A stretch of 64,000 bases of DNA from Bordetella genomosp. 10 (GTDB lineage Bacteria > Pseudomonadota > Gammaproteobacteria > Burkholderiales > Burkholderiaceae_B), in assembly GCF_002261225.1 (NCBI RefSeq), contig NZ_NEVM01000005.1, forward strand, positions 1,612,001 to 1,676,000. Reading direction: 5' to 3'. Position numbers and translations under genes: made by a program. The notes beneath the pieces are model-generated. The model did no database searches and was not told where the DNA came from. It saw only the letters and a list, made by a program, of their open reading frames with translations. This document shows positions 2,467-63,976 of this stretch, one piece after another (the stretch's first letter is position 1; each line of letters starts with the position of its first letter).

Positions 2467-2479
2467 GGACGGGGCCCGC

Positions 2480-5828: not shown

Positions 5829-5872
5829 GGCGCTATTCTAAGGAATCTTTTTGCAACGGTGCCAATTTTGTC

Positions 5873-5901
5873 CTGCAAAGGGAAATATGGCCCCATATAA
5901 T
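5873..5901 (+). promoter_or_regulatory. Candidate promoter for nadK
   Basis: The divergent hrcA-nadK gap has a perfect TATAAT (5896-5901), with only a weak -35 match (TGCAAA) at 17-bp spacing. The same stretch overlaps CTGCAAA (5873-5879) and CCCCATAT (5891-5898), an imperfect heat-shock type arrangement with an 11-bp spacer. Either reading places a start site about 40 bases before the nadK ATG. Which sigma factor is used is uncertain. Confidence 0.4.
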
Positions 5902-5946
5902 CGACTCGACATAGTATTGAATTTTGATCCCCATCGGCGCCAGACC

Positions 5947-6846: not shown

Positions 6847-6858
6847 CGCCCCTCGAAC

Positions 6859-8502: not shown

Positions 8503-8528
8503 CTATTGGCGGCCTGACGGCAGCCGAA

Positions 8529-18688: not shown

Positions 18689-21600
18689 GCGACGGCACGA
18701 TCGCCCACCAGGAGCAAACCGCCCCGCGCACCTTGCGCACCCTGATCGCGGCACAGGCCGGCGCCGCGCTGACCACCGATGACGTGCTGGTGCTGATCCT
18801 GCCCCTGTTCCAGCAGGTGGCCGCGCTGCATGCGCAGGGCAAGGTGGCCGCGCTCGATCCCGAGAGCATCCTCGTCGGCGACGACGGCGTCCTAGGCTTG
18901 CGTCGCCCCGAAGGCGAACCGCCCCTCATGGACATCGGCGCCGTGCATCGCGTGCAGCCGCACCCGGCCTCGGGCCTGAACATCGTCGGCACGCTGCAGC
19001 GCAGCCACACGGAGGACGGGCGCCGGGAAGAGTCGGACCTGGCGCTGCAGTTCGATGCCGCCCAGCCCATCGCCCGCCCTGTGTATCTGCCGGGCCCCGC
19101 GAGCTGGGAGCTGCAAGTCGGGCACCATGACGAGATCACCGACGTCTTCCTGCTCGGCATGGCGCTGGCGAGCCTGGCCTGCGGCCTGGACTTTGCCGAC
19201 GAGAACGACTTGCGCGCGTTCGTCCTGCACCGGCGCAATCTGTTCGTGCTGCACGAGCGCCTGCATCCGATCGTCGCGGCGGCCATCGTCGAGATGACCG
19301 AGGCCAACCGGCACGACCGCGCCACCGACGTGGCGGAGCTCGCCACGCGCCTGCGCACCTGGCGCGAGCAACCGCTCGGCCTGGACGTGGCGCGCGCCCT
19401 GGCGGGCGCCACCGGCGCCACCTCGCGTCGCACCGCGGTGCTCGCGCACCTGCGCGACCGCCTGTTCGACCTGTCGCGCCGCAACCGCCTGCTGTATTTC
19501 CGGCCGACGGCCGCCACCGTCAACCTGACCGTGGCCAGCGTGCCGCTGATGCTGCAAATAGAGAGCGTGCGCCCCGAGCACATCTGTACCTGGGGCGGAC
19601 CGTTCGCCGCCGAACTGGTGGCGGGCAAGCCGGTCTCATTGCAGCGCTGGCTGCGCTTTGAGGACCAGCCCTACCTGCCCGCGTCGCTGGACCGCCTGAT
19701 TGCCGAGACGCGCCGCGACCGCGCCGAGTTCGGCTTCAGCAACCTGCGCCTGGTGGTGGGCTTCCTGCGTTGGCACAACCTGAAGGAAGCGCCGGACGAG
19801 CGCATCGTCACGCCGCTGCTGTGGCTGCCGGTGGAACTGGTCAAGCGCAAGGGCGTGCGCGACCAGTACGTGATCCAGGGCAGCGGCGGAGATGCCGAGT
19901 TCAACCCGGTGCTGCGCCATCACCTGAGCCAGCTCTACGACATCCGACTGCCCGAGACGGTGGACCTGGGCAAGACCACCCTGGCGGAGATCCACGCCGA
20001 CATCCTCGCGCAGATCCGCCGCTCCGAACCGGCGGTCGAATTGCGCCTGGTGGACAAGGCGGCCGTCCGCCTGGTGCGGCAGAAGGCGCTACAGCGCATG
20101 CAGCAGTATCAACGCCGCAAGCCGGCGGCCGGGACGCGCGTGCGCGCCGGCGGCGGCGGCCTGCTGCCTCCCTACAGCTATGCGCGGGACGACTACCGCC
20201 CGCTGGGCCGCGCGCTGTTCGAGCATTGGGTACGCCCGAGCGAACTGCCGCAACGCTTCGAGGCCGGCGCCGCGCCCGGCGCCGGCGTACGCCAGCCGCA
20301 CATGGCCGAGCCGGCCGCGGTCACCGAGGAGCGCGAGGGCTACGTATTGCAGGAATCCGAAGGCCACCGCTATGCGTGGGACCTCGATCTCACGCAGGTC
20401 ACGCTGGCCAACTTCAACTACAAGAAGATGTCGCTGGTGCGCGACTACGCGCAACTGCTGGATGCCCCGAGCGCCAACCCGGCGTTCGATCGCGTGTTCT
20501 CGATCGAGCCGCGCGAGGTGGAAACCGCGGTTCCCGCGCCGCTCGCACCGGGCGAGCAATGGAACGTGGTGGCCTCCGACGCCACGCAGAACGCCGCCGT
20601 CGGCCTGGCTCGCGACCAGCGCAGCTTCATCATCCAGGGGCCGCCGGGCACCGGCAAGTCGCAGACCATCACCAACCTCATCGCCGACTACGCCGGGCGC
20701 GGCAAGCGCGTGCTGTTCGTGTGCGAGAAGCGCGCCGCGCTGGACGTGGTGTTCCACCGCCTCAAGCAGAGCGGGCTGGACCCGCTTTGCTGCCTGATCC
20801 ACGATTCGCAGACCGACAAGAAAGCCTTCATCGCCGACCTGAAGGCCTGCTACGAACAGTGGATCGCCCAGCCGGACGACAGCGCCGCCTTGCAGGCGCG
20901 GCGCACGGCGCTGGTGGATGCGCTCACGGTCCACCAGCGGCGGATCGATGCGTTCGAAGCGGCGCTGGCCGCCGCGCCCGATGCCCTGGGCGACAGCGTG
21001 CGCGTATTGCTGCGCCGCATGGCCGCGCTGCCGGCGGCGCCCGGGATCAGCCCGGCCCTGCGCGAGCGCCTGCCGGCGCTGGCCGAATGGGACGGCCAGC
21101 GCGAACTCGTCCAGCGCCTGCACCGCGCGCTGCGCGAGCGTTTCGGCGTGGACAGCCTGGCCGCCCACCCGTTCGCGCGCCTGTCGGCCCGACTGGTGGC
21201 CGATGAACGCGCGTTTGGCCGCGCCGAGCAACTATGCCAGGAGACCGAAGCGCTGTTCGACACGCTGGACCCGCTGCTCGACAGCACGGCCAGCCTGATC
21301 GGTCACGACACCGCGCTGGAACATGCCCGCGCCCTCTCCGCCGACAGCCAGTGGCTGCTCGACACCGGGCTTGCCGCCCATCTGGAACTGCTCGATCCGG
21401 CTTCGTCCGCGCAGGCGGCGTTGCGCCAGGTGCGGACCGACCTGGAGGGGCTTGCCGAAGCGCTGACCGGCGCGCAAGCCGCCACCGCCCACTGGCGGGA
21501 CAAGCTCGACGCCGGCGACACCGAATCCGCGTTGGCCCTGGCCAAGCGCCTGGAGCCCTCCGCCATGCGCTGGCTGCAACCCGCATGGTGGCGCCTGCGC

Positions 21601-24201
21601 GCCGAACTCAAGCGCCGCTACGATTTCACCCGGCACGCCGTGCACCCCGGCTACGGCAAGGTACTCGAACAGTTGGCGGCCGAACACGCCGCGGCCAGCG
21701 CGCTGGCCGCGGCGGATGCCGACAGCCGCAAGCGCTACGGCGTGGGCGAAATGCAGGCCTTCCTGCGCGCCCTGGCCGACCTGGAGCAGCGCCTGCAATC
21801 CGGCGGCGGCCCGCGCGAGCTGGTCGCCTACCTGCGCCAGGCCATCGACCCGGTGGCCGCCGCCCGCGCGCAGGCCGGCGCGCGCGACGCGCTCGACAAG
21901 CTGGACCAGCGCGTGCGCGAGGGGCTGGCGCTCGACGCCGACGCGCGCCTGGCGGACATCGCCGAAGGACTGCGCGACCTGCGCGAGGCGCTCGACGACC
22001 TGCCCGACATGCTGCCGCTGCTGCGCGCCGTGCATGCCGGCGCCCCGGCCTGCGCCGCCACGCTGCAACGGATCGACCATGCGCCGGCGCAGCTTGACGC
22101 GCTCGTCGCCGACGAGGCGCTGCGCCGCCTGGAGCGCGAGAATCCCGTGCTGGCGCGCTTCAACGGCGCGGCGCTGGCCCAGGCCGCGCGTGCGCTGGCA
22201 CAAGGCCAGCGCGAGCTGCTCGCGCTCAACGCCCAGGTGGTGCGCGCCACCCTGCACCGGCAGTTTTCCGAGCACGTCCGGCTATCGGCGCTGTCAGCCA
22301 CGCAACTCGACGCCGACGGCAAGGTTTTCAAGAAGCAATACGCTACCGGCCGCCGCGAGCTGGAGCACGAGTTCGGCAAGAGCATGCGCCACCGGTCCAT
22401 CCGCGACCTGGCCGACGACGAGACCGGCGCCGTCATCAACGACCTCAAGCCGATCTGGCTGATGAGCCCGTTGTCGGTGTCCGACACCCTGCCCTTGTCG
22501 CCGGACCTGTTCGACGTCGTGATCTTCGACGAAGCCAGCCAGATCCCCACCGAAGAAGCCGTGCCCGCGCTGAGCCGCGCGCGCCAGGTGGTGGTGGTCG
22601 GCGACGAGATGCAGTTGCCGCCCACCAGCTTCTTCACCGCCGGCGGCAGCGAGGACGAAGACGAGATCGTGGTGGCGGAAGACGGCGACCGCGTCACCAT
22701 CAACCTCGACGCCGACAGCCTGCTGAACCAGGCCGCGCGCAACCTGCCCGCCACCTTGCTGGCGTGGCACTACCGCAGCCGGCACGAATCGCTCATCAGC
22801 TTCTCCAACGCGGCCTTCTATGATGGGCGGCTGGTCACGATTCCCGATCGCGCGCTGGCGCGGGCCGAGGATGACGATGACGCCGCGCCGCTGCGTTCCG
22901 ACAGGGATGACGCCGGCATCGCCGGCGCGGACCTGCTGCTGGCGCGGCCGATCAGCTTCCACCGGCTGGCTGACGGCGTCTACGTGGAGCGCCGCAACGC
23001 GCCCGAGGCGCGCTACATCGCGCTGACGGTGCGTGAGCTGCTGCGCCGCGAGAGCGGCCTGAGCCTGGGCATCGTGGCATTCTCCGAGGCGCAGCAGAGC
23101 GCCATCGAGGCCGCGCTGGAAGCCCTGGCCGCCGAAGACGCCGACTTCTCCACGCGCCTCGAACGCGAGTACGTGCGCGAGGACGACGACCAGTTCAACG
23201 GCCTGTTCGTGAAGAACCTGGAGAACGTGCAGGGCGACGAGCGTGACGTCATCCTGCTGAGCATCTGCTATGCGCCCGGTCCCGATGGCAAGATGCAGAT
23301 GAACTTCGGCCCGATCAACCAGCGCGGCGGCGAAAAGCGCCTGAACGTGATATTCAGCCGTGCGCGGCATCGCATGGCGGTGGTCTCCACCATCCAGGCC
23401 GAGGCCATCACCAACGTGCACAACGACGGCGCCGCCGCGCTGCGCGCCTTCCTGCAATTCGCGCAGGCCAGCGCGGCCGGCCAGTTCGAGCGCGCGCAAG
23501 CGGTGCTCGGGGCGCTCAACCAGGGCGCGCGCGACGCATTCACGCGGCAGGCGTCGCCCGACAGCATTCGCGATGCGCTGGCGGAGGCGTTGCGTACGCG
23601 CGGCCATCAGGTGCATGCCAACGTCGGCCACTCGCAGTTCCGCTGCGACCTGGCCATCGTCGATACAGCCAGGCAGGACTACGCGCTGGCCATCCTGCTG
23701 GACAACCCGACCGACGCCGTGACCGACACCGCCGAGCGATATGTGTTCCGCCCCGGCATCCTGCGCGGCTTCGGCTGGCGCGTGCTCGACATCCCCGGCA
23801 AGGACTGGCTCGACGATGCCGACGCGGTGATCGCCCGCATCGAGGCCATGCTGGCGAGCGGCGAAGACCGGGCGCTGGATACGGAGATCGAGTTGCTCGT
23901 ATCCGTGCAACCCCCGTCACAGCCGTCAATTGACCCTGACGCCCCTGACGCCCCGGCCGAGCCCGCCGCCACGGCGCCCTCCGAACAGGAACACTCGCGC
24001 TCGCTGCGCTTCGAGCAAGGCAACGCGCGCAAGTTCTGGCGCGCGAACCTGCGCGGCACGGAACTGAGCGTCAGCTATGGCCGCATCGGCGCCGCCGGCC
24101 AGACCAACATCAAGCAATTCGAGACCGCCGAGCGCGCGCGGCGCGAGATGGACAAGCTGGTGGGCGAGAAACTGCGCAAGGGTTACGTCGAGGATGAATA
24201 G
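18685..24201 (+). CDS. Giant DUF4011 SF1 helicase with pseudokinase, PD-(D/E)XK-like and WGR domains
   Basis: An 1838-residue multidomain protein. Residues 1-235 resemble the C-lobe of a protein kinase (HAQGKVAALDPESILV, ITDVFLLGMALASLACGLD) without a clear catalytic set. DUF4011 begins near 256 (LRDRLFDLSRRNRLLYF). The SF1 helicase has Walker A GPPGTGKS at 652-659, a long helical insert, Walker B DEAS at 1282-1285, the GDEMQLPPTSFF motif, and motifs V and VI near 1517 and 1553. Residues about 1625-1725 resemble a Vsr/MTES_1575-type nuclease fold (FRCDLAIVD), but the usual ECDG is ILLDN, so activity is doubtful. A WGR domain ends the protein (1772-1838). Domain kinship with DUF4011 anti-phage helicases suggests defence; this is inference. 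Confidence 0.88.
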   Translation: MSDGTIAHQEQTAPRTLRTLIAAQAGAALTTDDVLVLILPLFQQVAALHAQGKVAALDPESILVGDDGVLGLRRPEGEPPLMDIGAVHRVQPHPASGLNIVGTLQRSHTEDGRREESDLALQFDAAQPIARPVYLPGPASWELQVGHHDEITDVFLLGMALASLACGLDFADENDLRAFVLHRRNLFVLHERLHPIVAAAIVEMTEANRHDRATDVAELATRLRTWREQPLGLDVARALAGATGATSRRTAVLAHLRDRLFDLSRRNRLLYFRPTAATVNLTVASVPLMLQIESVRPEHICTWGGPFAAELVAGKPVSLQRWLRFEDQPYLPASLDRLIAETRRDRAEFGFSNLRLVVGFLRWHNLKEAPDERIVTPLLWLPVELVKRKGVRDQYVIQGSGGDAEFNPVLRHHLSQLYDIRLPETVDLGKTTLAEIHADILAQIRRSEPAVELRLVDKAAVRLVRQKALQRMQQYQRRKPAAGTRVRAGGGGLLPPYSYARDDYRPLGRALFEHWVRPSELPQRFEAGAAPGAGVRQPHMAEPAAVTEEREGYVLQESEGHRYAWDLDLTQVTLANFNYKKMSLVRDYAQLLDAPSANPAFDRVFSIEPREVETAVPAPLAPGEQWNVVASDATQNAAVGLARDQRSFIIQGPPGTGKSQTITNLIADYAGRGKRVLFVCEKRAALDVVFHRLKQSGLDPLCCLIHDSQTDKKAFIADLKACYEQWIAQPDDSAALQARRTALVDALTVHQRRIDAFEAALAAAPDALGDSVRVLLRRMAALPAAPGISPALRERLPALAEWDGQRELVQRLHRALRERFGVDSLAAHPFARLSARLVADERAFGRAEQLCQETEALFDTLDPLLDSTASLIGHDTALEHARALSADSQWLLDTGLAAHLELLDPASSAQAALRQVRTDLEGLAEALTGAQAATAHWRDKLDAGDTESALALAKRLEPSAMRWLQPAWWRLRAELKRRYDFTRHAVHPGYGKVLEQLAAEHAAASALAAADADSRKRYGVGEMQAFLRALADLEQRLQSGGGPRELVAYLRQAIDPVAAARAQAGARDALDKLDQRVREGLALDADARLADIAEGLRDLREALDDLPDMLPLLRAVHAGAPACAATLQRIDHAPAQLDALVADEALRRLERENPVLARFNGAALAQAARALAQGQRELLALNAQVVRATLHRQFSEHVRLSALSATQLDADGKVFKKQYATGRRELEHEFGKSMRHRSIRDLADDETGAVINDLKPIWLMSPLSVSDTLPLSPDLFDVVIFDEASQIPTEEAVPALSRARQVVVVGDEMQLPPTSFFTAGGSEDEDEIVVAEDGDRVTINLDADSLLNQAARNLPATLLAWHYRSRHESLISFSNAAFYDGRLVTIPDRALARAEDDDDAAPLRSDRDDAGIAGADLLLARPISFHRLADGVYVERRNAPEARYIALTVRELLRRESGLSLGIVAFSEAQQSAIEAALEALAAEDADFSTRLEREYVREDDDQFNGLFVKNLENVQGDERDVILLSICYAPGPDGKMQMNFGPINQRGGEKRLNVIFSRARHRMAVVSTIQAEAITNVHNDGAAALRAFLQFAQASAAGQFERAQAVLGALNQGARDAFTRQASPDSIRDALAEALRTRGHQVHANVGHSQFRCDLAIVDTARQDYALAILLDNPTDAVTDTAERYVFRPGILRGFGWRVLDIPGKDWLDDADAVIARIEAMLASGEDRALDTEIELLVSVQPPSQPSIDPDAPDAPAEPAATAPSEQEHSRSLRFEQGNARKFWRANLRGTELSVSYGRIGAAGQTNIKQFETAERARREMDKLVGEKLRKGYVEDE

Positions 24202-52654: not shown

Positions 52655-53194
52655 TCACAGGATGGTGGGATTCGGCGCGTCGCCGTACACCAGCTTCGGG
52701 TCGAAGATTTTTTCCGATTCCGTGAAAAGAAGCGAATCGCCTTGCGTACGCGCCCGCCCGATCGGCACGCTGCGGTAGAAGCAGGAGCGATAGCCGACGT
52801 GGCAACTTGCGGCAGAGCCGGCGACCCGTACACGCAGCCAGACGGCATCCTGGTCATCGTCGATGCGAAGTTCTTCGACCGTCTGCACCAGACCGCTGGT
52901 GGCGCCTTTGTGCCACACGACCTGACGCGATCGACTCCAGTAATGGGCCTCGCCAGTCTGGATGGTTCTACGCAACGCCTCTTCATTCATATAGCCCAGC
53001 ATCAGCACCTCGCCAAGCTCGGCATCGGTCGTCACGCAAGGAATCAGGCCGTCGCGGTCGAATTTTGGCGCCAGTTCGTCGCCTTCCTCGATCTGCTCGA
53101 TCGATGTTCTCGGCGAAAATCGGGGAAGCGGCAATACGGTGCCTATGCGCGTCGCATCAACACCGGGTTGAACGGTTTCGTCTTGGGTGTTCAT
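52655..53194 (-). CDS. hisI: Phosphoribosyl-AMP cyclohydrolase paralogue (HisI-like) lacking one zinc Cys
   Basis: Opens the purine ring of PR-AMP in histidine synthesis. The 179-residue product has [35 protein letters not shown] and the C-terminal [10 protein letters not shown]. In known HisI the zinc is held by three Cys, one in a DCDxD loop and two in the C-terminal CH..G..SCF segment. Here the loop reads DDDQD (residues 112-116), so the first Cys is Asp-113 while Cys-131 and Cys-138 remain. It is longer than usual, with N- and C-terminal additions. It is last in the zinc-starvation type operon, 103 bp after pyrC, without the other his genes. Confidence 0.9.
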
Positions 53195-53297
53195 CCTGCT
53201 GTCCTTGTTGTCATTTCCACATGCTGCCGGCGATCGCGGTCAGACTTCGTATAGTGTCCGTACATCGCCGGCCGGTAGGCGGCGCTGCTCGGTGGTT

Positions 53298-54677
53298 TCA
53301 AAAATCTACAGGATTCGCCGTCGCCTCCAGGAACTCAATAGGTTGCCCCACGGGCTCGCCGATGAGCGCGGCATCTTTCGCCACCACATGGCCCCGGACC
53401 ACGGTGGCCATGGGCCACCCCGTGACGCTCTTTCCGTGATAGGGCGTCCAGGCCGCGACACTCGCCATCCAACGGTTGGTAATCTCCCGCCGGGCACGGA
53501 GGTCCACCAGCGTCAGGTCCGCGTCATAGCCGACGGCAATGCGGCCCTTGCCGGCGAGGCCGAAGAGACGGGCCGGTCCGGCACTCGTCAGGTCCACCAA
53601 CCGTTCCAGGGTCAGGCGGCCCGCGTGGACGTGGTCCAACATGATGGGCAACAGCGTCTGTACGCCCGTCATGCCGCTGGGCGAGGTCGGATAGGGTTGC
53701 TGCTTTTCGTCGAGCGTATGCGGCGCATGGTCACTGCCCAGGACATCCACGATGCCGTCACGGATCGCCCGCCACAGCGCATCCTGATGATGCTGCTCGC
53801 GCACGGGCGGGTTCATCTGTGCCAACGTGCCCAGCCGTTCATAGCATTCCGGCGCCGCAAGGGTCAGGTGGTGAGGCGTGACCTCGACGCTGACACGGCG
53901 CTTGTGGTGGGCCAGGAAAGCCATTTCCTCTGCGGTGGACACGTGCAAGACGTGCAGCCTGCGGCCGGCCTCGGCAGCCAGGCCGACGATCCGCTGTGTC
54001 GCCGTCAGCGCGCTGGTGACATCGCGCCAGACAGGATGGTCGCGCACGTCGCCGCTAGCCTGGGCCAGCGCCTTGCGCTCGCGCAAGCGCGCCTCGTCCT
54101 CGGCATGCACCGCCATGCGCCGCGTGCCATGGCGCACGATACGCCGCAGCACGTCCTCGTCGTCGGCCAACAGGTCGCCGAAAGAACTGCCCATGAACAC
54201 CTTGACGCCGGCGCAGCCCGGCAGGCGCTCCAACTCGGCCAACTGCTCCGCGTTCACCGCCGATCCGCCCATGTAGAAGGCATAGTCGCACCAGGCGCGC
54301 CCGTGCGCGCGGTCCAGCTTGGCTTGCAGGTCCGCCGCGGTCAAGGTCAGCGGATTGGTGTTGGGCATCTCGAAGACGGCCGTCACCCCGCCCAACACCG
54401 CGCCGCGGGTGCCGGTTTCCAGGTTTTCCTTGTGTGTCAGCCCCGGCTCGCGGAAATGCACCTGGCTGTCGATCACCCCAGGCAGCACATGCAGGCCCAG
54501 GGCATGGAGGGTGGTCCGTGCCGTCCAGCCCGTCGCATCCAGGGCCACGATCTTGCCGCCCAGGCAAACAATGTCGCAGGGGGTATAGCCGCTGGGCGTC
54601 ACCACGGTACCGCCCGTCACGCACAGGTCTGCGTGCCGGCGTGCCAGCCGGCGCGCAATGTCCCGATCATCATTCAC
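53298..54677 (-). CDS. pyrC: Dihydroorotase-like amidohydrolase (pyrC paralogue)
   Basis: Cyclises carbamoyl-aspartate in pyrimidine synthesis. I start at GTG 54677 because AAGGAG lies 7 bases upstream (459 residues); an ATG at 54692 is possible. Class I features: VIDSQVHFREPG, HKENLETGTRGAVLGGVT, MPNTNP, VLHVSTAEE, EVTPHHLTL, LGSDHAPHT. The usual metal-binding HxH reads Gln72-Val-His74, so one zinc ligand is changed. PyrC paralogues are classic members of Zur operons (for example in Pseudomonas). It overlaps the SagB-type gene by 8 nt. Confidence 0.9.
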   Translation of the reverse strand: MNDDRDIARRLARRHADLCVTGGTVVTPSGYTPCDIVCLGGKIVALDATGWTARTTLHALGLHVLPGVIDSQVHFREPGLTHKENLETGTRGAVLGGVTAVFEMPNTNPLTLTAADLQAKLDRAHGRAWCDYAFYMGGSAVNAEQLAELERLPGCAGVKVFMGSSFGDLLADDEDVLRRIVRHGTRRMAVHAEDEARLRERKALAQASGDVRDHPVWRDVTSALTATQRIVGLAAEAGRRLHVLHVSTAEEMAFLAHHKRRVSVEVTPHHLTLAAPECYERLGTLAQMNPPVREQHHQDALWRAIRDGIVDVLGSDHAPHTLDEKQQPYPTSPSGMTGVQTLLPIMLDHVHAGRLTLERLVDLTSAGPARLFGLAGKGRIAVGYDADLTLVDLRARREITNRWMASVAAWTPYHGKSVTGWPMATVVRGHVVAKDAALIGEPVGQPIEFLEATANPVDF

Positions 54678-56322
54678 GATGCGCTCCTTCATAGGCGGGC
54701 TCGGTCTGGATGCGCGAATCGTGCCTGGCCCCTCCGACCGTGAAGCCATAGAGGCTCTGGAACGTCATTCCCGATAGTCCGAATGCATCGTGAATCACAT
54801 CATCAAAAAAACAACCTATTCCCGTGCCGCGCAACCCCACTGCCTCCGCCTCCAAATAAAGCACTTGTCCCACCATGCCGGCCTCCCAGAAGAGGCGCCG
54901 GTAGCTCCACGGGCCTTCTTGTTGCAGCGTGCGCTCGAAGTCGGCCAACATGGCAACCGAGAACACACCGTTGGCCGCAATGGCCTGGTGGCAGTTGCTG
55001 CCGGCGGCGAATCGCCGCGTATCGCCCACGCCGAGCCGGACCAGCCGTGCGTTACCCGGAAGGCCCGCGATCGGCTCCCATTCCGAGAATCCGGTCAACG
55101 CCTCGCGCAGCCGCGATTCCTGGCCGGGCTCGCGGACCAGCAGGTAGATGCCGCGCTCCAGGCCGATGACCCGGTGGACCAGAAAAACAGGGTGAATGGC
55201 GCTTGCCCACGGCCACGCAGCCCACGGCGTGGCCGTCGCCGGCAGCAGCCGCGCCAGGAGTCGTCCAAAGTCACCTTTGAGCAGACCGGCCTGACCGTCC
55301 ATCTCGACGGCACTGCGCCGGGTACGGAACAGCCGGCGTGCCGCCAAGCCCGGGCGGCTTCCCACCACGGCGGCGCGCCGCGTCGTCGGCGCCGCGGCGA
55401 CCAGACTGCCTGCCTGCCGTTCCCGCCGCGTCGCGGCAGCAACCCGGTCGATTTCCGGCCATGGCCGGTGGCTCGGGCTCAGGCGATTGGGCACGCCTTT
55501 GAACGGCGGGCGGTCGCGTGCCGTGGTCCACGCGCAGGGGGGCACCCACGCCGCCGCCACGTCGGGGGCCGCGGCCTGCGGCGACGCGGCCAACAAGACG
55601 TCCGGATGCTCCCCGTCTTCGCCCACCTGGGCCGAGATACCCGCGAGCAGCGCGATGTCATCGTCGCTGACGGCAGACAGCGGCCGGACGTGCCAGCCCA
55701 GCGCCGCGGCGGCATAGGACAGCTGCGCGATCGCATGTCCCACGTCGTGCTGGCAATAGCGGTAGGCGCGCTCACCGTACTTCCAGGCTTCCCGCCAGTG
55801 GATGGACGTGAGCGCGACCAGGAAGGTAGACGGGGGCAACGCCGCCATCGCGCCGTCCCACTGGCTCGTCTTCCAGACGGTGCGCCGTTCCAATGCGTGA
55901 TCGAGCGGTCGATAGTGGTATAGCGCCGGGGCCTGACCGAGGCCGTCGATCGCGGGCAGCAACAGGTGCGCTTCGGTCGGATGCAGGTTGCCACTGGAAG
56001 GATTGCAGCGCACGGCCCAGCGATCGCCGCCTGCGACCTTCCAGGCCGAGATGGCCAGAGCGTCGTAGAGAAGTTGCGAGACCAGGTTGAACGACAGCTC
56101 GGCGGGGTCAACCGCACCCGCGGCCACTGTGTCGAAATCCGGGCCATCGGCTGCCGGCTCCGGCCGTGCAAGCGCGACCTGTTCCGCGCCCTCATAAGTA
56201 CGAAAGGGATCGGGCTGCGTGGCCCAATCCAGCCCATCGGGCCCGGGCGCGTAAGCGTCCAGCCGGTGTTTCGTGCGGGCGTGGAAGGCCAGGACGGTTT
56301 CGAGGCGATTTTCGGCCTTCAT
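54670..56322 (-). CDS. SagB-type double nitroreductase-family dehydrogenase
   Basis: A 550-residue flavoprotein of the nitroreductase superfamily with two related halves, about residues 80-260 ([41 protein letters not shown]) and 390-540 ([50 protein letters not shown]). SagB proteins oxidise azolines in peptide modification, but no YcaO or peptide gene is nearby. It overlaps thrS by 4 nt (56319-56322) and pyrC by 8 nt, so it is a true member of this operon. Its role in zinc limitation is not known to me. Confidence 0.82.
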
Positions 56323-58232
56323 GCGCGGACCTGCTGATCGGGCGGCCGCGCGGCCTCTTGCAGGCGCTGCGCGGCCTCGGCCAGTACCATCGTGCCGAGG
56401 TCTTCGCCGGCGCGGCTGCGCAGCGCCACCGTGCTACCCTCGGCTTCCTTGGCCCCGACCACGAGCAGATACGGCACCCGCTGCAGGGTGTGCTCGCGGA
56501 TCTTGTAGCCGATTTTCTCGTTGCGCACGTCGGCGGCGCTTCGGACGCCGGCCCGGCGCAATGCGTCGGACACACCCCGGGCATAATCGGCGTGGGACTC
56601 GGTAATGGACAGCACGGTTGCCTGTATCGGCGCGAGCCAGGCCGGCAGATGGCCGGCATGGTGCTCCAGAAGTATGCCGATGAAACGCTCCAACGAGCCG
56701 AACAAGGCGCGATGCAGCATGACGGGACGCCTGCGCTGGCCATCCTCGGCCACGTAGTCGATATCGAACCGCTCGGGCAGGTTCATGTCCACCTGTAGCG
56801 TGCCGCACTGCCAATCGCGGCCGATGGCATCGCGCAGCACGAATTCGAGCTTCGGGCCGTAGAATGCCCCTTCCCCCGGATTGACCGCATAGGACAAGCC
56901 CAGGCCATCGAGCGCCTGTACCAGCGCATGCTCCAGGCGGTCCCAGGTGGCGTCGTCGCCCATCCGGTGCTCGGGCCGGGTCGAGAGCTTGATCGCCACG
57001 TCCTCGAAGCCGAACTGGCGGTAGATGTCCAGCACCAACGCGACCACGTCCCGGCACTCGGCGTCCATCTGCTCAGGCGTGCAGAAGATGTGCGCGTCAT
57101 CCTGGGTGAAATGGCGCACCCGCATCAGGCCGTGCAGCGCGCCCGAGGGCTCGTAGCGGTGCACCTTGCCGAACTCGGCCATGCGGATAGGCAGGTCGCG
57201 GTAGCTGCGCAGCCCGTGCTTGAAGAGCGAGACGCCACCCGGGCAATTCATGGGCTTGAGCGCGAAGACCCGTTCATCCTCGGTGGTCGTGGTGAACATG
57301 TGCTCGCGATAGTTGGCCCAGTGCCCCGAGCGCTCCCACAGGCTGCGGTCCATGACGTCGGGCGTATTGACCTCGACGTAGCCGGCCGCTTCCTGGCGGC
57401 GGCGCATGTAGTCGACCAGCACCCGAAAGACCGTCCAGCCCTTGGGGTGCCAGAAGACGGCGCCGGGGGCATCTTCCTGGAAATGGAACAGGTCCAGTTC
57501 CCGGCCCAGGCGGCGATGGTCGCGTCTTTCCGCCTCCTCCAGGCGGGTCAGGTAGGCGTCCAACGCCTCGCGGCTCGCCCAGGCCGTGCCGTAGATGCGC
57601 TGCAACTGCTCGTTCCTGGCGTCGCCTCGCCAATAGGCGCCGGCCAGCTTGGTCAGCTTGAAGTGCTTCAGAAAGCGCGTATTGGGCACGTGCGGGCCGC
57701 GGCACATGTCCACGTATTCCTCGTGGAAATACAGGCCCAGCGTCGCCTCGTCGGGCATGTCCTCGATCAGCCGCAGCTTGTAGGCCTCGCCGCGCGCCTG
57801 GAAGACGTGGATGGCTTCCTCACGCGGCACCAGCCGCTTGATGACCGGATAGTGCTTGGCAATCAGCACGCGCATACGCGCCTCTATCGCCGCCAGATCT
57901 TCTTGCGTAAACGGCCGCTCGAACGCGATGTCGTAGTAAAAGCCATCCTCGATCACCGGGCCGATGACCATCTCGGCCGTCGGATAAAGCTGCTTGACGG
58001 CATGTCCCACCAGATGCGCGCACGAGTGCCGAATGACGGCCAGGCCATCCGGGCTGTCGGCCGCCACGGGCTGGACGTCGGCGTGTGGATCAACCGGGTC
58101 GGACAGATCCCGCAAGATGCCATCGACACGCGCCGCCACGGCAGTCCTCAACTGTTCGGGCGCCGCAGCCTTGAGAACCTGGAGGGCCGTGGCCACAGGC
58201 ACCGCCGCAGGACTTTCCGTCATTGCGCTCAT
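56319..58232 (-). CDS. thrS: Threonyl-tRNA synthetase paralogue
   Basis: Charges tRNA-Thr. The 637-residue product starts at MSAMTESP (58232), overlapping the previous stop as ATGA. The N-terminal TGS region is weak, the editing domain has [13 protein letters not shown] and [12 protein letters not shown], and the catalytic core has [22 protein letters not shown] and DDAHIFC. Cys-330, His-381 and His-507 correspond at a constant offset to the zinc ligands of E. coli ThrRS, so zinc binding is kept. The usual PGH after the Cys is PGG here. Second thrS genes are known in zinc-starvation regulons. Confidence 0.93.
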
Positions 58233-58960
58233 AGCGTCTCCACGACCTCGGGGGTCAGGCGCATATACCCCTCGGCGTACTCGATGTTGCGCGAGGCGGT
58301 GATGCCGATGTTGCGCTTGGCCTGCACCCCGCGCTGCAAGGCCATGCGCGTGTAGTATTCCCACAGGTGTTCCTGGCCGGCCATGCATTCGATGGCACGG
58401 CGCTTGACCTCCCACACGTCGGTGATGTCGAGGAAGGTGTTGGGCATCCACTCGCACTGTTCGGTCTGGTGCGGCTCGAAGGCATAGACGGGTGGTGCGC
58501 CGAGGATCTTCTGGCCGGGATTGTGCCCTTCGGCCTGGGCCGTGACCCGTGCCTCCTGGGTCAGGTGCATGGCCAGGGGATGGTCGAAGTTGTAGGGATC
58601 TTTCACCGAATGGCTCAACACGAAGGCCGGCTGCAGTTCGCGGTAGAGGTCGACCAGCCGGAACAGCGTGTCGTCGGTGACCCGCATCGGGTAATCGCCG
58701 ATGTCCCAGAATTCGACCTCCGCACCGAGAATGTCGGCCGCACGCTGGGCTTCGTCGCGGCGGGCGATCTTGACCTGCTCCAGCGTCATACCGGGGCGGC
58801 GCCAGAGCTTGGCGGATTCGCCACGCTCGCCAAACGACAGACAGACGATCTTGACCTGCCAGCCCTGGCGGGCGTGATAGGCGATGGCACCGCCCGCACG
58901 CCACACGAAATCGGCCGAATGGGCGCTCACGACGAGCGCCGTCTTGTTCTTGGAGGTCAT
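58229..58960 (-). CDS. PIG-L family protein, GalB-like (possible 4-oxalomesaconate hydratase)
   Basis: A 243-residue PIG-L/LmbE-fold protein starting at [11 protein letters not shown] (58960). The zinc motif, AHPDD in deacetylases, reads AHSAD: His-14 and Asp-17 are kept but the catalytic Asp is Ala-16. The second motif DHPLAMH and [12 protein letters not shown] are present. This AHSAD form and the flanking FVWRAGGAI and [10 protein letters not shown] segments resemble GalB-type hydratases of gallate catabolism rather than deacetylases. Why such an enzyme lies in this operon is unclear; an upstream TTG at 59008 would extend it by 16 residues. Confidence 0.78.
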
Positions 58961-59004
58961 GCTGCGGGTTCCCCTTGCGGAATCGGATGTTGCATAGCGG
59001 TTAT

Positions 59005-59565
59005 TCAAAGCTCGTTCTGGATGGCCTTGTAGCCCTGCACGAGGCCATTGTTCGTGCGCGCCACGTCCTCGGAGAATTCACTGGCGTCGGCCGTGATCCG
59101 CGGCAGCGTAGCGAGGTCCGTGGCCGCACCGATGCGTTCGGTCGAAGGTACGTAGAAGCCGGAGGGCAGATGGCAGCCATCGACCACGGCGTTGTAGCGG
59201 ACCACGCAGCCGTCTTCGACCGTACAGTTGAAGAGCACGCTGTTAAAACCAATGAAAACGCCGTCGCCGACCTGGCAGGGCCCGTGGACAATGGCGCGGT
59301 GCGCGATCGACGTGCGCTGGCCGATCGTCACGGGCGAACCAGACTTGGCGTGGATGACTACGCCGTCCTGGATGTTGGAATGCGCGCCGATGACGATGGG
59401 CGAGAGTTCGCCATCGCCATCGGTTTCATCGGCCCGAATGACGGCATACGGCCCGATGAAGACGTTTTCCTCGACCACGACCTTGCCGCACAGGATCGCG
59501 GTCGGGTCCACGAAGGCACTGGGATGAATGCGCGGCAGGTCGCCGCGGGGGTTCTTGCGGATCAT
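59005..59565 (-). CDS. Gamma-class carbonic anhydrase-like protein
   Basis: A 186-residue left-handed beta-helix protein of hexapeptide repeats (VVEENVFIGPYAVIRAD, IVIGAHSNIQDGVVIHA, TIGQRTSIAHRAIVHG). The three metal His are in place at residues 72, 89 and 94. Gamma-carbonic anhydrases can work with iron or cobalt instead of zinc, which explains their presence in Zur operons (Pseudomonas has one next to pyrC and folE2 paralogues). Its start overlaps the stop of the upstream fusion gene by 4 nt. Confidence 0.9.
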   Translation of the reverse strand: MIRKNPRGDLPRIHPSAFVDPTAILCGKVVVEENVFIGPYAVIRADETDGDGELSPIVIGAHSNIQDGVVIHAKSGSPVTIGQRTSIAHRAIVHGPCQVGDGVFIGFNSVLFNCTVEDGCVVRYNAVVDGCHLPSGFYVPSTERIGAATDLATLPRITADASEFSEDVARTNNGLVQGYKAIQNEL

Positions 59566-60161
59566 GAATGTTCAACAGAGGGTTGTAGGGACAAGGTGGC
59601 GCGCTGCCGTTGGCTGAGCAATACCCGTTGCAGCACCGTCAGGTGCGGAAACTCCACCAACATGCCGATGACCAGCGCAGCATAGACCAGCGGCTGGCCG
59701 GGCAGCGCGGCCATCGTCACCGCCAGCATCAATGGTGCATTCCGGGCCGCGATGTTCATGGTGAGCAGCGCGTGCTCGGGATAGCCCAGCAGCAGCTGCG
59801 CCACCATGTTGATGGGAATCAGCGCCGTGCCCAGGGCAGCGTTGCCGCGCGCCAGCCGCGTAAAGCCCAGAAACCAGTCCGTGCATGGCGACATGAAATA
59901 GATCATGAGGCCGATCATGAAGAGGGGCTGCGTCGCCAACAACGCCGAGGCGATGCCATAGCCGATGGCGGGCACGAACAGGTAATTGGCGAGCAGAATC
60001 AGCCCGATCACGCGCACACCGCCGCGCAACTGCGCGACGGCCTCGAAGCGGACACCGAAGAACAGCACGCCGAACCGCAGCCCGGGCACCTTCTGCAGCG
60101 CCAGCGCCATGCCGATCCCGGCGGCGCCCGCGCCCACGACAGCCACATCCAGTCGATGCAT
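59562..60161 (-). CDS. Fusion remnant: oxidoreductase N-terminus joined to an ACR3/bile-acid-symporter-type transporter
   Basis: A 199-residue frame made of two unlike parts. Residues 1-33 ([19 protein letters not shown] ... LRFGVL) are the dinucleotide-binding start of an FAD/NAD(P) oxidoreductase. From about residue 34 it continues as the middle and C-terminal part of an ACR3-like (bile acid:sodium symporter superfamily) membrane protein (LILLANYLFVPAIGYGIA, FMIGLMIYFMSPCTDWFLGF, ALIPINMVAQLLLGYP). The junction is near 60060. Start and stop both overlap neighbours (TAATG with rpmJ, ATGA with the carbonic anhydrase). I infer an in-frame deletion that merged two operon genes; the product is probably not functional. 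Confidence 0.72.
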   Translation of the reverse strand: MHRLDVAVVGAGAAGIGMALALQKVPGLRFGVLFFGVRFEAVAQLRGGVRVIGLILLANYLFVPAIGYGIASALLATQPLFMIGLMIYFMSPCTDWFLGFTRLARGNAALGTALIPINMVAQLLLGYPEHALLTMNIAARNAPLMLAVTMAALPGQPLVYAALVIGMLVEFPHLTVLQRVLLSQRQRATLSLQPSVEHS

Positions 60162-60307
60162 TACGACTTCCTGCTCTTGGCGCCACCCTGTCGGGCCTTG
60201 AAGCGCGGATTCGACTTGCAGATCACGTAGATACGGCCACGCCGGCGCACGACCTGGCAGTCACGGTGGCGCGTCTTGGCGTCTTTGAGCGAGGAGAGAA
60301 CTTTCAT
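60161..60307 (-). CDS. rpmJ: Ribosomal protein L36 paralogue, zinc-free type
   Basis: A 48-residue L36. It starts [20 protein letters not shown] and ends [13 protein letters not shown], very close to E. coli YkgO, the L36 form lacking the zinc ribbon (the standard form has CxxC plus a Cys and His). YkgO-type L36 replaces the zinc form when zinc is scarce so that ribosomes keep working while zinc is released. Its stop overlaps the next start (TAATG). RBS GGAG-like sequence (AAAGGAGCCCCC) precedes the ATG. Confidence 0.95.
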
Positions 60308-60347
60308 GGGGGCTCCTTTCGAGCAAGAAATAGTCAACAGGAGGCGT

Positions 60348-60953
60348 TCATGTGATTGCGGCGTCCGATATCGATTCATGGGATGCAGGCGCCCGCAATT
60401 TTCCCAACTTGAGCCGCTCGAACAGGTCAGGGTCGCCCCACTCCCGGCTGATGGCGGCCGAGAATGTGATATCCCGCAAGTCGATGGTGCCCATGTACGG
60501 ATTCTCGACGTCTTCGCGGAAACACTGCGCGTAGCCGGTCTCGGTCTCGTGCACGATGACCGAATGCAGCCCCACGTCTGCTTCCCCATTGGCCATGTCC
60601 GTCTGCGCCAGCACGGCGTCCACCAGCCGGAAGATCACCCGCGAAAACTGTTCGGCGCTGGGCGATACCGGAAGGACGATCCATCGTTCGGAATGCTGCT
60701 GCATGGCGGCTACATAGGCGGGATCGTCCTCGGACCAGAGGGTGACGGCGTGATCGAAAGCGTCGATCAGGTCGCGCGCGCCACGCTTGAGCAGGCCAAA
60801 GTCATAGACCATCTGGCCACGATCCAGTGCGTGCGCTTCGAGCAGAAGCTCGACCTTGTAGGAATGTCCGTGGACCGAATGGGAACAACGCCGCGTGCTG
60901 CAACCCCGCACGATATGGGCGTTCTCGAACTTGAACAGCTTGCGAATCAGCAT
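60348..60953 (-). CDS. 6-pyruvoyl-tetrahydropterin synthase / QueD-like protein
   Basis: A 201-residue T-fold enzyme. The metal His are His-13 (KFENAHIV) and His-28/His-30 ([10 protein letters not shown]), with Cys residues at 18 and 23 in front, and the conserved [25 protein letters not shown] block follows. QueD makes carboxy-tetrahydropterin for queuosine and uses the product of GTP cyclohydrolase; folE2 in the same operon supplies that precursor. It is longer than E. coli QueD by about 80 C-terminal residues. It overlaps yidD by 7 nt. Confidence 0.88.
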
Positions 60954-61192
60954 GTGCGCCTCCTCGCATCGGAAGCAGGCGGAACGGGGTCATAACCGCC
61001 GGGATGCCAGGGATGGCAGCGACCGATCCGGCGCAAACCTAACCACACCCCGCAAAGGACACCATGCTGCTGCACGGCCTCGATGGCGTACTGGGAGCAC
61101 GATGGCGAGAATCGGCAATTCCTGCCCAGCCAGGGGCTGAGCCCGAGCTGGTATGCGCGAATCAGCAAGATGACCATGCGAGCAAGGCTCAT
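60947..61192 (-). CDS. yidD: Membrane protein insertion efficiency factor YidD paralogue
   Basis: An 81-residue protein with an amphipathic N-terminus ([20 protein letters not shown]) and the YidD signature [20 protein letters not shown] plus [15 protein letters not shown]. YidD normally sits between rnpA and yidC near the origin, so this copy in an operon of metal-related paralogues is out of place. The family has conserved Cys and His residues in the signature, which could bind metal. It starts at 61192, overlapping the cysS stop as ATGA. Confidence 0.92.
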
Positions 61193-62604
61193 AACGTCGC
61201 CTCCGCGCCCACACGCCAGGCCGTCCCTTGCGCCGTGTCCTCCAGGACGATGCCCGCGTCCTCCAGGGTGCGCCGCAAGGCGTCGGCGCGCGCATAGTCC
61301 CGTTGGGTACGCGCTTGCGCACGTTCCGCGATCAAGCGCTCTACCCATACCGCGTCGATGATGTCGGAAGCTGGACTGGCATGAAATCCCTGCAGCGCCG
61401 CCACCATCTGCGCGGCATCCTGCTGCACCAGGCCCAGCAATGCGCCGGAAGCCAGAAATTGAGCCTTCGCGTACATGCGTGCGCCGTTGGACTGCGCGCG
61501 ATCCAGCTCCGCGGCTAACTGGTGAAGACGGGCCAGCGCCGCGGGCGTATTCAGGTCATTGGCCAAGGCCGCCACCACGCCCTCGTCAGGCCCGATGCCC
61601 TGGGCTACCTCCGATTGGGCGACTCGGTCCAGGGCACGGTAGAAGCGGTGCAGCGTGCGGCAAGCCTGTGCCAGCCGGTCGTCGGTCCAGTCCAGGGGGT
61701 GGCGGTAGTGCGTGGAGAGCAGCGCCAGGCGTATCGCTTCCCCGGGCGCGAGCTTCAATAGATCGCGCACCAGCAGCACGTTGCCCAGCGACTTGGACAT
61801 CTTCTGCCCGTCGACCGTCACGAAGCTGTTGTGGACCCAGGTTCTGCAATACACCGTGCCGTGCGCGCAGGAGCCCTGGGCGATCTCGTTTTCGTGATGC
61901 GGAAAGATCAGATCCTGGCCTCCCCCGTGAATATCCACCGTCTGGCCCAGGTGCTGGCCGATCATGGCCGAACACTCAATGTGCCAGCCGGGCCGCCCGC
62001 GCCCCCACGGGCTATCCCAGCCGGGCAGCTCGGGCGTCGACGGCTTCCAGAGGACGAAGTCCAGCGGGTTACGCTTATAGGGCGCCACCTCGACACGCGC
62101 CCCGGCCAGCATGTCCTGCGGCCGGCGCCCGGACAGGCGGCCATATTCGGGGAAGGACGACACATCGAACAGGACGTGCCCCTGGGCTTCGTAGGCGTGC
62201 CCGCGGGCGATCAGGGTCCGGATCAGGGCAATGATGGCCGGGACGTGTTCCGTCACCCGGGGTTCAAGGTCCGGCGGCAGGACGCCCAGGGCCTGCATGT
62301 CCTCGTGATAGGCGTCGATGTAGCGCGCCGTGATCGTGCCGATCGGCACACCAGATGCCGCCGCTGCCGCATTGATCTTGTCGTCGACGTCGGTGAAGTT
62401 GCGCGCGTACACCACGCGGGGGTAGACATGGCGCAGCAAGCGCGCCAACACGTCGAAGACCACGGCGGGACGGGCGTTGCCGAGGTGAGCGTAGTTATAG
62501 ACCGTCGGGCCGCAGACATACATCGTGACCCGGTCTGGCTGTTCCGGCTGCAACGCTTCCTTTGCGTGGGCCAGGGTGTTGTAAAGGCGGATTTCCGTGT
62601 TCAT
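61189..62604 (-). CDS. cysS: Cysteinyl-tRNA synthetase paralogue
   Basis: Charges tRNA-Cys. The 471-residue product starts at [10 protein letters not shown] (62604). It has the HIGH-type region [21 protein letters not shown], and KMSKSLGN. The zinc ligands of E. coli CysRS appear conserved: Cys-31 (YVCGPTV), Cys-211 (HIECSAM), His-236 and Glu-240 (FPHHENE). So the enzyme should still need zinc, and its role as a starvation paralogue may rest on expression or affinity. It overlaps the COG0523 remnant by 4 nt. Confidence 0.95.
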
Positions 62605-63065
62605 CCCACCGCCTCCCACGCCTTGGGTAGCGCATGGCTGAACGCCCGGAACGAATCCTCGATCACGTCTCGCCCCACATCCCGAGTGATGAATACCAAG
62701 CGGGAACGTTTGTCATCGCTGGGCCAGGCGGGCAGCGTGACCGGCGGATGGAAAATATGCTGGACGCCGTGAATGACGACGGGCCGGTCACTGCCCTCGA
62801 TATTCAAAATACCTTTGACGCGCAGGATGTCGGCGCCCACGAAGCTCATCGACACCTCCAACCACGCCGCAAACACCTCCTCCGGGATGGGAACATCCAC
62901 GGAAAAGCAGAATGCGCGGATGTGGTCATCATGGCGATTGACGTCATGGTGATGGGGCAGTTCCGGCTGCTGCACCAGATGGTTCAGCACCGTGGTCTTG
63001 CCGCTGCCCAGAAATCCCGTCAGCAGCGTGACCGGAATCAGTTCGACAGGGGTGCTCATACTCAT
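62601..63065 (-). CDS. Internally deleted COG0523 (CobW/ZNG-type) GTPase
   Basis: A 154-residue frame. Residues 1-36 are a perfect COG0523 start with Walker [22 protein letters not shown]. The sequence then jumps to the late region [60 protein letters not shown] and the C-terminal domain. Complete relatives are around 330-400 residues. The missing part holds the metal-binding CxCC, Walker B and NKxD motifs, so the protein cannot act as a normal GTPase. The frame and both ATGA overlaps are intact. I infer an in-frame deletion near 62955. Confidence 0.82.
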
Positions 63066-63976
63066 AGGGCCTCGCTTGCCGGGTTTTCGGCCCAGGCGGC
63101 AGCGTCATGCGGATGCAGGCTCTCCAGATGCCGCACGTGCACGCGCGGCTGATCGAAGCGGCCGCGCAGCGCTGCCTGAATGCGGCGCGCGGCATCCTCG
63201 ACGAACATCAGGTTGCCGCCATTGAGCGCGGCGAAGGCCTGCTCGTCGGCACGCTTGACCGCGGTCTGCACGGGGGTACTCAGCGCTTGCTCGATGCAGT
63301 CGATCAGGGGAAGCAACCCCAGGTTTGGCGCAACAGGTGCCACGCAGACCGTCACGCAGGCCTGGCTGCGCTGGCTGTGGGGCGTGGCGAGCGTGGCATT
63401 CTGGCGCAACCAGGCAGCCACCGTGGCTGGCGCCAAGCGGTCCCGACCCGAAAAAGTGTCAAGAAAGGCCTGCTCCACCAATTGCCGCGACAAGGCCGCC
63501 GAACATGGGCACGTCGAGGAATATGCCACGGTGACCTGGGCTTCGAGCGCGTAATGCCCCTGCCGCAAGGTCGCGCGGATCTCCACCGGATATGCCTTCC
63601 ACCCGGCCAGGTCCTCCGATACGAGGGCCGGCCGGCGTACCAGCAGGTCGAAAGACAGGGTCAGCCGTGCGCTGCGGCTCTCGCAATCGTGGTGACTCAC
63701 CACCATCGCGCGCAGCACCTCGTGAATCGAGACCGGCGTGAGGTCGGTCCGATCGGCCAAACCATCCAGCAGGCGGTATAGGCGGGACATGTGAATGCCC
63801 TTGACGTGCGGCGCGGGCAGGTCCACCTGTACGTCGGCGCGTGCGTGCAGCGCGCGCCGGTAGCCGGGCTCGGCCACCGTGACAGGCAGATCGATACCCT
63901 GCATCCCGACCCATTCCAGGGCGCTCAGGCTGGGCGAAAGCTCGGTGGTCGAAACGTCGGGTAGAACGGTATCCAC
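63062..63976 (-). CDS. folE2: GTP cyclohydrolase FolE2 (type IB)
   Basis: Converts GTP to dihydroneopterin triphosphate, the first step to folate and queuosine, using metals other than zinc. The 304-residue frame has [17 protein letters not shown]-like [28 protein letters not shown] with the active-site Cys (Cys-156 or Cys-158), and the late [17 protein letters not shown] and [16 protein letters not shown] at 63976 is only one possible start: the frame stays open to the window edge (…SNTIPSIN before it), so the true start may lie beyond. FolE2 is the classic Zur-controlled substitute for zinc-dependent FolE. Confidence 0.93.

What the first reader, a model, noticed from the sequence alone, without database searches (positions are those of the whole stretch)
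52655..63976. Broad zinc-starvation operon of about thirteen overlapping genes
Seen: folE2, COG0523, cysS, yidD, queD-like, zinc-free rpmJ, ACR3-like fusion, gamma-carbonic anhydrase, GalB-like PIG-L, thrS, SagB-type, pyrC and hisI all on one strand, most with start-stop overlaps. Known: FolE2, YkgO-type L36, PyrC, ThrS, CysS and gamma-CA paralogues next to COG0523 proteins are a hallmark of Zur regulons. Inference: this operon replaces or backs up a large set of zinc enzymes in translation, nucleotide, folate/queuosine and histidine metabolism. The inclusion of yidD, SagB-type and GalB-like genes appears to widen the known gene set.
Basis: partly seen in the sequence, partly recalled or inferred. 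Interest (0 to 1): 0.9.

Follow-up and report, generated by a model that had tools for sequence, protein, structure and literature searches.

The report
Zinc-starvation spare-enzyme operon, partly eroded
This looks like a bacterial operon of spare copies of zinc-using enzymes for times of zinc shortage, a known kind of system; two of its thirteen genes have been cut down in frame, and one spare enzyme has lost a residue described as part of a conserved zinc site.

Summary
The thirteen genes are there, on one strand, and 9 of 12 junctions overlap. The operon is a large member of a known kind: Zur-type back-up operons with FolE2, COG0523 and paralogues of CysS, ThrS, QueD, gamma-CA, PyrC and HisI (PMC2770081 passages). 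The window ends 24 bases before folE2, so its own Zur box cannot be seen; 32 of 38 related loci have one before folE2 or before the cobW-like gene ahead of it. No whole genome is held for the window.

Four points go beyond the finding. (1) The COG0523 gene and the "ACR3 fusion" are in-frame deletion remnants; similar scars occur in related operons. (2) HisI2 has DDDQD where housekeeping HisI has DCDxD: one of three catalytic zinc cysteines is Asp. In four small genomes it is the only HisI found. (3) yidD recurs: genomes with an operonic yidD have two copies (5 of 5), those without have one (4 of 4). (4) GalB (PIG-L) and SagB were seen in no other such operon examined.

New variant of a known kind. 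Zur control here, metal use and any function of the scars are inferred.

The parts
63062..63976 (-). folE2, GTG start; first gene of the operon; window ends 24 bases upstream
   Evidence: PF02649 1.9e-69, NF010200 1.3e-93; GTG lines up with the ATG of L002 folE2
62601..63065 (-). mini-CobW: COG0523 remnant with in-frame internal deletion (P-loop peptide + CobW_C domain)
   Evidence: PF07683 1-93/94 and PF02492 1-24/180; matches 7-34 and 238-351 of full-length L212 CobW
61189..62604 (-). cysS paralogue, zinc-ligand motifs kept (motifs recalled)
   Evidence: TIGR00435 3.1e-147; motifs
60947..61192 (-). yidD paralogue, three Cys and CHP kept
   Evidence: TIGR00278; alignment A1
60348..60953 (-). 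queD-like, 201 aa, His/Cys motif kept
   Evidence: PF01242 1.6e-21; TIGR03367 below its cut-off; 68-78% identical to queD in related zinc loci
60161..60307 (-). rpmJ of the Cys-poor YkgO-like type
   Evidence: 89% identical to L225 rpmJ, which lies between folE2 and gamma-CA
59562..60161 (-). FAD-oxidoreductase N-terminus fused in frame to an internally deleted ACR3-like carrier (deletion scar)
59005..59565 (-). gamma-carbonic anhydrase, three His kept
   Evidence: 82-84% identical in six related loci, 68-72% in five more
58229..58960 (-). galB-like PIG-L (4-oxalomesaconate hydratase); a TTG start at 59008 would overlap gamma-CA
   Evidence: 5cgz 2.3e-123 over residues 6-243
56319..58232 (-). 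thrS paralogue, zinc-ligand motifs kept (motifs recalled)
   Evidence: 72-74% identical to the nearer thrS of 9 genomes; motifs
54670..56322 (-). SagB-type double nitroreductase-domain protein
   Evidence: TIGR03605 4.7e-31, two stretches; 3eo7 5.4e-23
53298..54692 (-). pyrC paralogue (start ATG 54692 or GTG 54677), HxH changed to QxH
   Evidence: NF006559 9.3e-221; motif DSQVHF; starts read
52655..53194 (-). hisI2, DDDQD type, one catalytic zinc Cys replaced by Asp; 103 bases after pyrC

Best explanation
A Zur-repressed zinc-starvation operon. When zinc falls, Zur releases the promoter upstream of folE2 and one translationally coupled message supplies spares. FolE2 is of the metal-promiscuous kind; L36, PyrC (QxH) and HisI (Asp for Cys) are altered at a zinc site; CysS, ThrS, QueD, gamma-CA and YidD keep their motifs and would add copies or take another metal. 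GalB and SagB are lineage-specific recruits. The operon is also losing genes: CobW and an oxidoreductase-ACR3 pair have been cut by in-frame deletions that keep both ends and the start-stop overlaps, so translation still passes to the next gene. Shown: gene content, overlaps, truncations, motif changes, and Zur boxes and copy numbers in relatives. Inferred: Zur control here, zinc independence, and selection for coupling as the cause of in-frame scars.
For: Gene content matches the published set; FolE2 kind as metal-promiscuous from PMC11340326 passages. Related operons with the same backbone: L212 folE2-cobW-cysS-yidD-FADox-acr3-gCA-thrS-pyrC-hisI, and L002. Zur box of 10 or more of 12 fixed bases: 20 of 38 chosen heads, L001 when taken at folE2, and 11 of the remaining 17 when taken before the cobW-like gene ahead of folE2; 32 of 38 in all. 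Copy number: HisI 2 in 8 genomes with such an operon, ThrS 2 in 9 of 9, YidD 2 in 5 of 5 with and 1 in 4 of 4 without operonic yidD, L36 2 in 2 of 5. HisI: DDDQD in 5 of 5 operon copies, DCDxD in 5 of 5 housekeeping copies of the same genomes. Scars in the window, L002, L222, L242 and L226; by hand 9 of 10 junctions are in frame (P 3.6e-4 against 1/3); with only BLAST-backed pieces 7 of 8 (P 0.0026).
Against: No Zur box can be seen for the window itself. Six of 38 loci gave none: L145 and L146 (9 of 12), L225, L226, L227, and L235 (no sequence to scan). The choice of heads was widened after the first scan. DCD-type HisI also occurs in or beside zinc loci: L003, and the copies near folE2 in L231, L237 and L242; Haas et al. 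state that zinc residues are conserved in HisI paralogues. L226 has an out-of-frame, stop-ridden acr3 remnant. Junction counting was post hoc, on few and related loci; the N-terminal residues of the L002 scar and the middle piece of the L242 scar were matched by eye. Some operons lost genes with no scar (L215, L216).
Confidence: 0.82

Rival explanations
1. The two shortened genes are assembly or sequencing artefacts in an otherwise intact operon.
For: No raw reads are available; among the 120 proteins listed the ACR3 fusion appears once, as the window's own (P0241).
Against: The mini-CobW cluster counts 2 member sequences and is listed with an 81,478-base contig, while the window's HisI and ACR3 are listed with a 3,379,911-base contig; this suggests two records, but the tables do not say that they are independent. 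All three junctions keep frame and the overlaps with neighbours. Similar scars occur in other genomes.
Confidence: 0.07
2. The remnants are functional mini-proteins under selection: mini-CobW as a stand-alone CobW_C domain that binds zinc or a client enzyme, the fusion as a small membrane protein.
For: CobW_C part 68% identical to L212; AlphaFold2 gives block means of 81-95 for residues 51-140 and 45-49 for residues 1-40, from a 14-sequence alignment. Four other database proteins (P0012, P0022, P0032, P0033) join a P-loop N-terminus to CobW_C sequence with different deletion points. The C-terminal ACR3 part is 84-91% identical to P0242, P0243 and P0245.
Against: The CxCC stretch and the rest of the GTPase core seen in L212 are gone. 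The ACR3 remnant lacks about half the carrier. High identity also fits recent deletion. The four database cases were found as open frames, so they are in frame by selection of the sample, and I looked at 13 of the 120 proteins listed.
Confidence: 0.2
3. The operon answers another signal (general metal or oxidative stress, or aromatic catabolism via GalB), not zinc.
For: The closest solved relative of PIG-L is 4-oxalomesaconate hydratase, an enzyme of gallate/protocatechuate breakdown (recalled). A SagB relative sits in a Polaromonas plasmid run with lipA, moaA, fdxA and ilvBN.
Against: No other aromatic-pathway family among the 28 window proteins scanned with Pfam; not all window ORFs were scanned. 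Zur boxes head most related loci.
Confidence: 0.06

Closest known systems
Cupriavidus metallidurans cobW1 operon Op0317f_1 (PMC10882993, PMC11340326, PMC2770081; passages read)
   Same: Metal-promiscuous FolE_IB2, COG0523, CysS2, QueD, PyrC/AllB-type amidohydrolase and carbonic anhydrase in one Zur-repressed operon
   Different: No ThrS, HisI, YidD, L36, GalB or SagB named in the passages read; nothing there says that CobW1 is shortened
Pseudomonas Zur-regulated clusters (P. protegens, P. aeruginosa; PMC6103462, PMC10393844; passages read)
   Same: folE2, gamma-CA, pyrC2, hisI2 (P. protegens), yciC, rpmJ in the Zur regulon or zinc-limitation response
   Different: Several units in P. aeruginosa; no yidD, GalB or SagB named in the passages; amiA/amiC and dksA are not among the window's thirteen genes
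   Same: Same backbone and order, Zur box before folE2
   Different: Full-length CobW and ACR3; no GalB, SagB or rpmJ found in the locus; L212 lacks queD there and has the intact FAD oxidoreductase, L002 a 66-aa scar of it
PRA-CH / HisI (1zps; MtHISN2 in PMC8102479, passages read)
   Same: 1zps 7.5e-34; Asp triad, two of three zinc Cys and the His after the second Cys kept
   Different: The cysteine of D-C-D-x-D, one of three ligands of the catalytic zinc, is Asp

Membership tests
Zur-regulated zinc-starvation (back-up paralogue) operon | FolE2 and paralogues of several zinc enzymes in one operon with a COG0523 gene | tested here: met
   the COG0523 gene is truncated
Zur-regulated zinc-starvation (back-up paralogue) operon | Zur box at the operon's own promoter | not testable with these tools
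   Window ends 24 bases upstream of folE2; no genome held. Related loci: 32 of 38
Zur-regulated zinc-starvation (back-up paralogue) operon | Housekeeping copies elsewhere in the same genome | not testable with these tools
   No genome for the window. In relatives: second copies of HisI, ThrS and YidD
COG0523 / G3E GTPase (window 62601-63065) | Complete GTPase domain with P-loop and CxCC stretch | tested here: not met
   Only 24 of 180 GTPase-domain positions matched; sequence compared with L212
ACR3 family transporter (window 59562-60161) | Full-length carrier of about 330 aa | tested here: not met
   199 aa, TIGR00832 32.6 bits against cut-off 282.8; 119 other listed hits 291-348 aa
HisI / PRA-CH | Three-cysteine catalytic zinc site (Cys126, Cys142, Cys149 of MtHISN2) | tested here: not met
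   First Cys is Asp; ligand roles from PMC8102479 passages
HisI / PRA-CH | Sequence similarity over the PRA-CH domain and Asp triad | tested here: met
   Motif DDDQD...CHVGYRSC; 1zps 7.5e-34 over residues 47-172
GalB 4-oxalomesaconate hydratase | Full-length similarity to GalB with the [12 protein letters not shown] stretch | tested here: met
   5cgz 2.3e-123
YkgO-type (Cys-poor) L36 | Loss of zinc-ribbon ligands | tested here: met
   By eye against L272-L274: first Cys and the His lost, two Cys kept; ligand positions recalled

The most novel reading that the evidence does not exclude
Three linked readings are not excluded. (a) The DDDQD HisI clade is a zinc-sparing PR-AMP cyclohydrolase whose Asp-Cys2 site works with another metal or far less zinc; some small-genome bacteria rely on it alone. 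(b) YidD, whose role in membrane protein insertion is poorly understood, is itself a zinc protein, which is why Zur operons carry a spare. (c) Tight translational coupling makes such operons lose genes mainly through in-frame deletions, leaving bridging scar ORFs such as mini-CobW that pass ribosomes on.
Probability: 0.35. Interest if true: 0.72.

Novelty: new variant of a known kind. Interest (0 to 1): 0.55.

Why it matters
The operon type is known, but it gives direct handles on open questions. A HisI subfamily breaks a residue described as universally conserved in cyclohydrolases (PMC8102479 passage), so its metal use can be assayed at once. A doubled yidD in zinc operons suggests a zinc requirement for a protein of unclear mechanism. 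The in-frame scars give a testable rule for how coupled operons lose genes without silencing their neighbours. They also warn annotators: the 'COG0523' and 'ACR3' labels here name remnants.

Tried and rejected
Own-genome checks: not possible. Zur-box scan of the window: 2 weak matches against 2.76 expected, neither near the operon. QueD as operon marker in Burkholderiales: 31 of 399 genomes matched; I took 20 of those 31 regions and only L147 held other relatives of the window's genes. SagB as marker: 54 of 399 genomes matched; of the 30 loci returned (about 1.5 kb flanks) 29 held only sagB among the window's genes and one also a cobW-like stretch. GalB in 10 zinc-operon genomes: 0 of 10 at 1e-20, without a positive control. 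PDB sequence relatives of YidD: none convincing, best E 0.68. YidD model too weak (pLDDT 69.9, pTM 0.57) and without coordinates, so a metal site could not be judged. Calling the fusion a new transporter was rejected. Literature, in this open-licence library only: for yidD with Zur and zinc, 4 papers hold the three words and 3 are listed; in the two bacterial ones the passages on yidD are gene-table rows with no link to zinc, the third is about frog retroviruses and was not opened; one search was seen as a listing. For an altered HisI zinc site, searches are listings, with passages read in PMC2770081, PMC6103462, PMC10242683 and PMC8102479; none described one. For in-frame remnants in coupled operons, one search listed two papers, not opened.
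Full report
What is there. Thirteen genes run in one direction from folE2 (63976) to hisI (52655). Junctions: six overlaps of 4 bases, one of 7, one of 1, and sagB/pyrC overlapping with either possible pyrC start; gaps of 40 (queD-rpmJ), 44 (gamma-CA-pigL) and 103 bases (pyrC-hisI). GC and third-position GC are even across the genes (0.60-0.68 and 0.69-0.86), so GalB and SagB do not stand out. The window's HisI and ACR3 remnant are listed with a 3,379,911-base contig. The first named relatives are Castellaniella hirudinis for HisI and Achromobacter for ACR3, with Castellaniella, Burkholderia multivorans and Pusillimonas next for ACR3, and Pseudomonas next for HisI; a host in Burkholderiales is a guess that horizontal transfer could spoil.

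Known kind. Haas et al. 2009 (PMC2770081, passages) list paralogues of HisI, PyrC, gamma-CA, CysRS, ThrRS and QueD, with FolE2 and COG0523, in Zur regulons of beta- and gammaproteobacteria, and a Cupriavidus metallidurans cluster of YciC, FolE2, CysS, QueD, Cam and PyrC. That operon has two Zur boxes and is expressed only under zinc starvation or without Zur (PMC10882993, passages). So the backbone is not new.

Relatives. I worked with 38 loci: L001 and L002 (from a ThrS search), L145-L147 (from QueD searches) and 33 around FolE2 hits. FolE2 hits were 86 of 150 genomes in the family of G001 at 1e-60, 3 of 399 in the Burkholderiales sample at 1e-80, 29 of 218 in the family of G002 at 1e-85 and 1 of 369 in the class sample at 1e-85. 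From I used only G001 (as L001) and G523; all hits (G002 as L002). The closest operons are L212 (folE2-cobW-cysS-yidD-FAD oxidoreductase-acr3-gCA-thrS-pyrC-hisI) and L002. Many other loci hold only folE2, or folE2 behind a cobW-like gene.

Zur boxes. Twenty of 38 heads, as first chosen, match at least 10 of 12 fixed bases of TGTTATNNNATAACA within 350 bases. L001 has a 12 of 12 match when folE2 is taken as head. The 17 others each have a cobW-like gene ahead of folE2 on the same strand; upstream of that gene 11 of 17 reach 10 or more. In all 32 of 38. The six without: L145 and L146 (9 of 12), L225, L226, L227 and L235 (one base to scan). The head was thus moved after the first scan.

Copy numbers. 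HisI: two copies in G001-G003 and one in the other nine genomes; two in G571, G747, G715, G129 and G523 and one in G1139-G1142. All eight with two carry a zinc locus with hisI. At least one single-copy genome (G005, locus L006) has a zinc locus without hisI. ThrS: two in 9 of 9. YidD: two in G001, G002, G571, G701 and G772, which have operonic yidD; one in G747, G715, G129 and G523, which do not. L36: two in G145 and G002, one in the other three searched; in G002 neither copy lies on the operon contig. These are relatives, not the window's genome.

YidD. In 5 of 38 loci yidD follows cysS. The window copy and 14 others, housekeeping and operonic, share C24, C30, H41, C57 and H58 without exception. 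A zinc role is inference from this and from the company it keeps.

HisI2. Against 1zps the cysteine of D-C-D-x-D is Asp in the window. PMC8102479 (passages) describes a zinc held by Cys126, Cys142 and Cys149 and reports these residues as universally conserved. Copies in the operons of five genomes: DDDQD in 5 of 5; their other copies: DCDxD in 5 of 5; the only HisI found in four small genomes (G1139-G1142, 1.1-1.5 Mb, alphaproteobacterial by record title): DDDQD in 4 of 4. Those four may be incomplete, so a missed second copy is possible. L001 and L002 also have DDDQD, but the hisI of L003 and those near folE2 in L231, L237 and L242 are DCD, which may be what Haas et al. saw. Of 7,999 proteins scored I looked at the 120 listed: 119 matched my pattern, all DDDQD, and the other shows DDDQD in the printed stretch. 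Zinc independence is not shown.

Other ligands. CysS, ThrS, QueD and gamma-CA keep the motifs I looked for; PyrC has QxH for HxH, as does its best PDB match 2gwn.

Scars. Mini-CobW joins residues 7-34 to 238-351 of the L212 protein. The 199-aa gene joins FAD oxidoreductase residues 3 to about 33 to ACR3 and later skips about 115 residues, between two spots that both read YP in four of five relatives aligned (P0242, P0243, P0248, P0250; not P0245), which suggests deletion at short repeats. The nearest HisI (88%) and nearest ACR3 (89-91%) in the database are listed with contigs of the same length, 200,094, and that ACR3 has 335 aa. Elsewhere: L002 has a 66-aa oxidoreductase scar (61 C-terminal residues by BLAST, the start by eye), L222 a 123-aa thrS scar, L242 a 55-aa cysS-gCA scar that overlaps the folE2 stop (a middle cysS piece matched by eye), and L226 a cobW-acr3 join followed by an out-of-frame, stop-containing stretch. 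By hand (window 3, L002 1, L222 2, L242 2, L226 2) 9 of 10 junctions keep frame, P 3.6e-4 if each had one chance in three; with BLAST-backed pieces only, 7 of 8, P 0.0026. The counts are post hoc. All 38 loci were scanned by ORF; chosen gaps of the window and 20 loci in every frame. A possible 17-residue gCA remnant in L223 is left out. AlphaFold2 folds the CobW_C part well and the P-loop remnant poorly (block means 45-49).

Recruits. PigL is a GalB by full-length match to 5cgz and gave no match in 10 operon-bearing genomes. SagB relatives are common in Burkholderiales (54 of 399) but were in no zinc locus examined. GalB's zinc need and pathway are recalled, apart from the PDB molecule name.

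Verdict. A large, partly eroded zinc-starvation operon: a new variant of a known kind. The HisI subfamily, the yidD spare and the in-frame scars are the points worth testing.

Noticed in passing
L279 1-11969 (Polaromonas sp. E3S plasmid pE3SP1): One-strand run folE-fdxA-lipA-rhodanese-P-loop NTPase-NifU-SelO-SagB-moaA-VIT-ilvB-ilvN on a plasmid, with a SagB 44% identical to the window's; looks like a spare set of Fe-S and other metal enzymes.
   Followed up: no
L033, L034, L036, L053: Small alphaproteobacterial genomes (marine single cells, by recall of the AG- names) with cysS, thrS and hisI close together and a single HisI of the DDDQD type.
   Followed up: partly
P0012, P0022, P0032, P0033: Other database proteins that join a P-loop N-terminus to CobW_C sequence with much of the GTPase core missing, each with a different deletion point.
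   Followed up: partly
   Followed up: no
window 26-8948: dnaK, grpE, hemH, hrcA and a fur-family gene on the - strand, with two ORFs without a Pfam match between them; order recalled as usual for Burkholderiales.
   Followed up: no
window 18685-24201: 1838-aa protein with DUF4011, AAA_11/AAA_12, REase_MTES_1575 and WGR domains, possibly a defence helicase-nuclease (role recalled).
   Followed up: no
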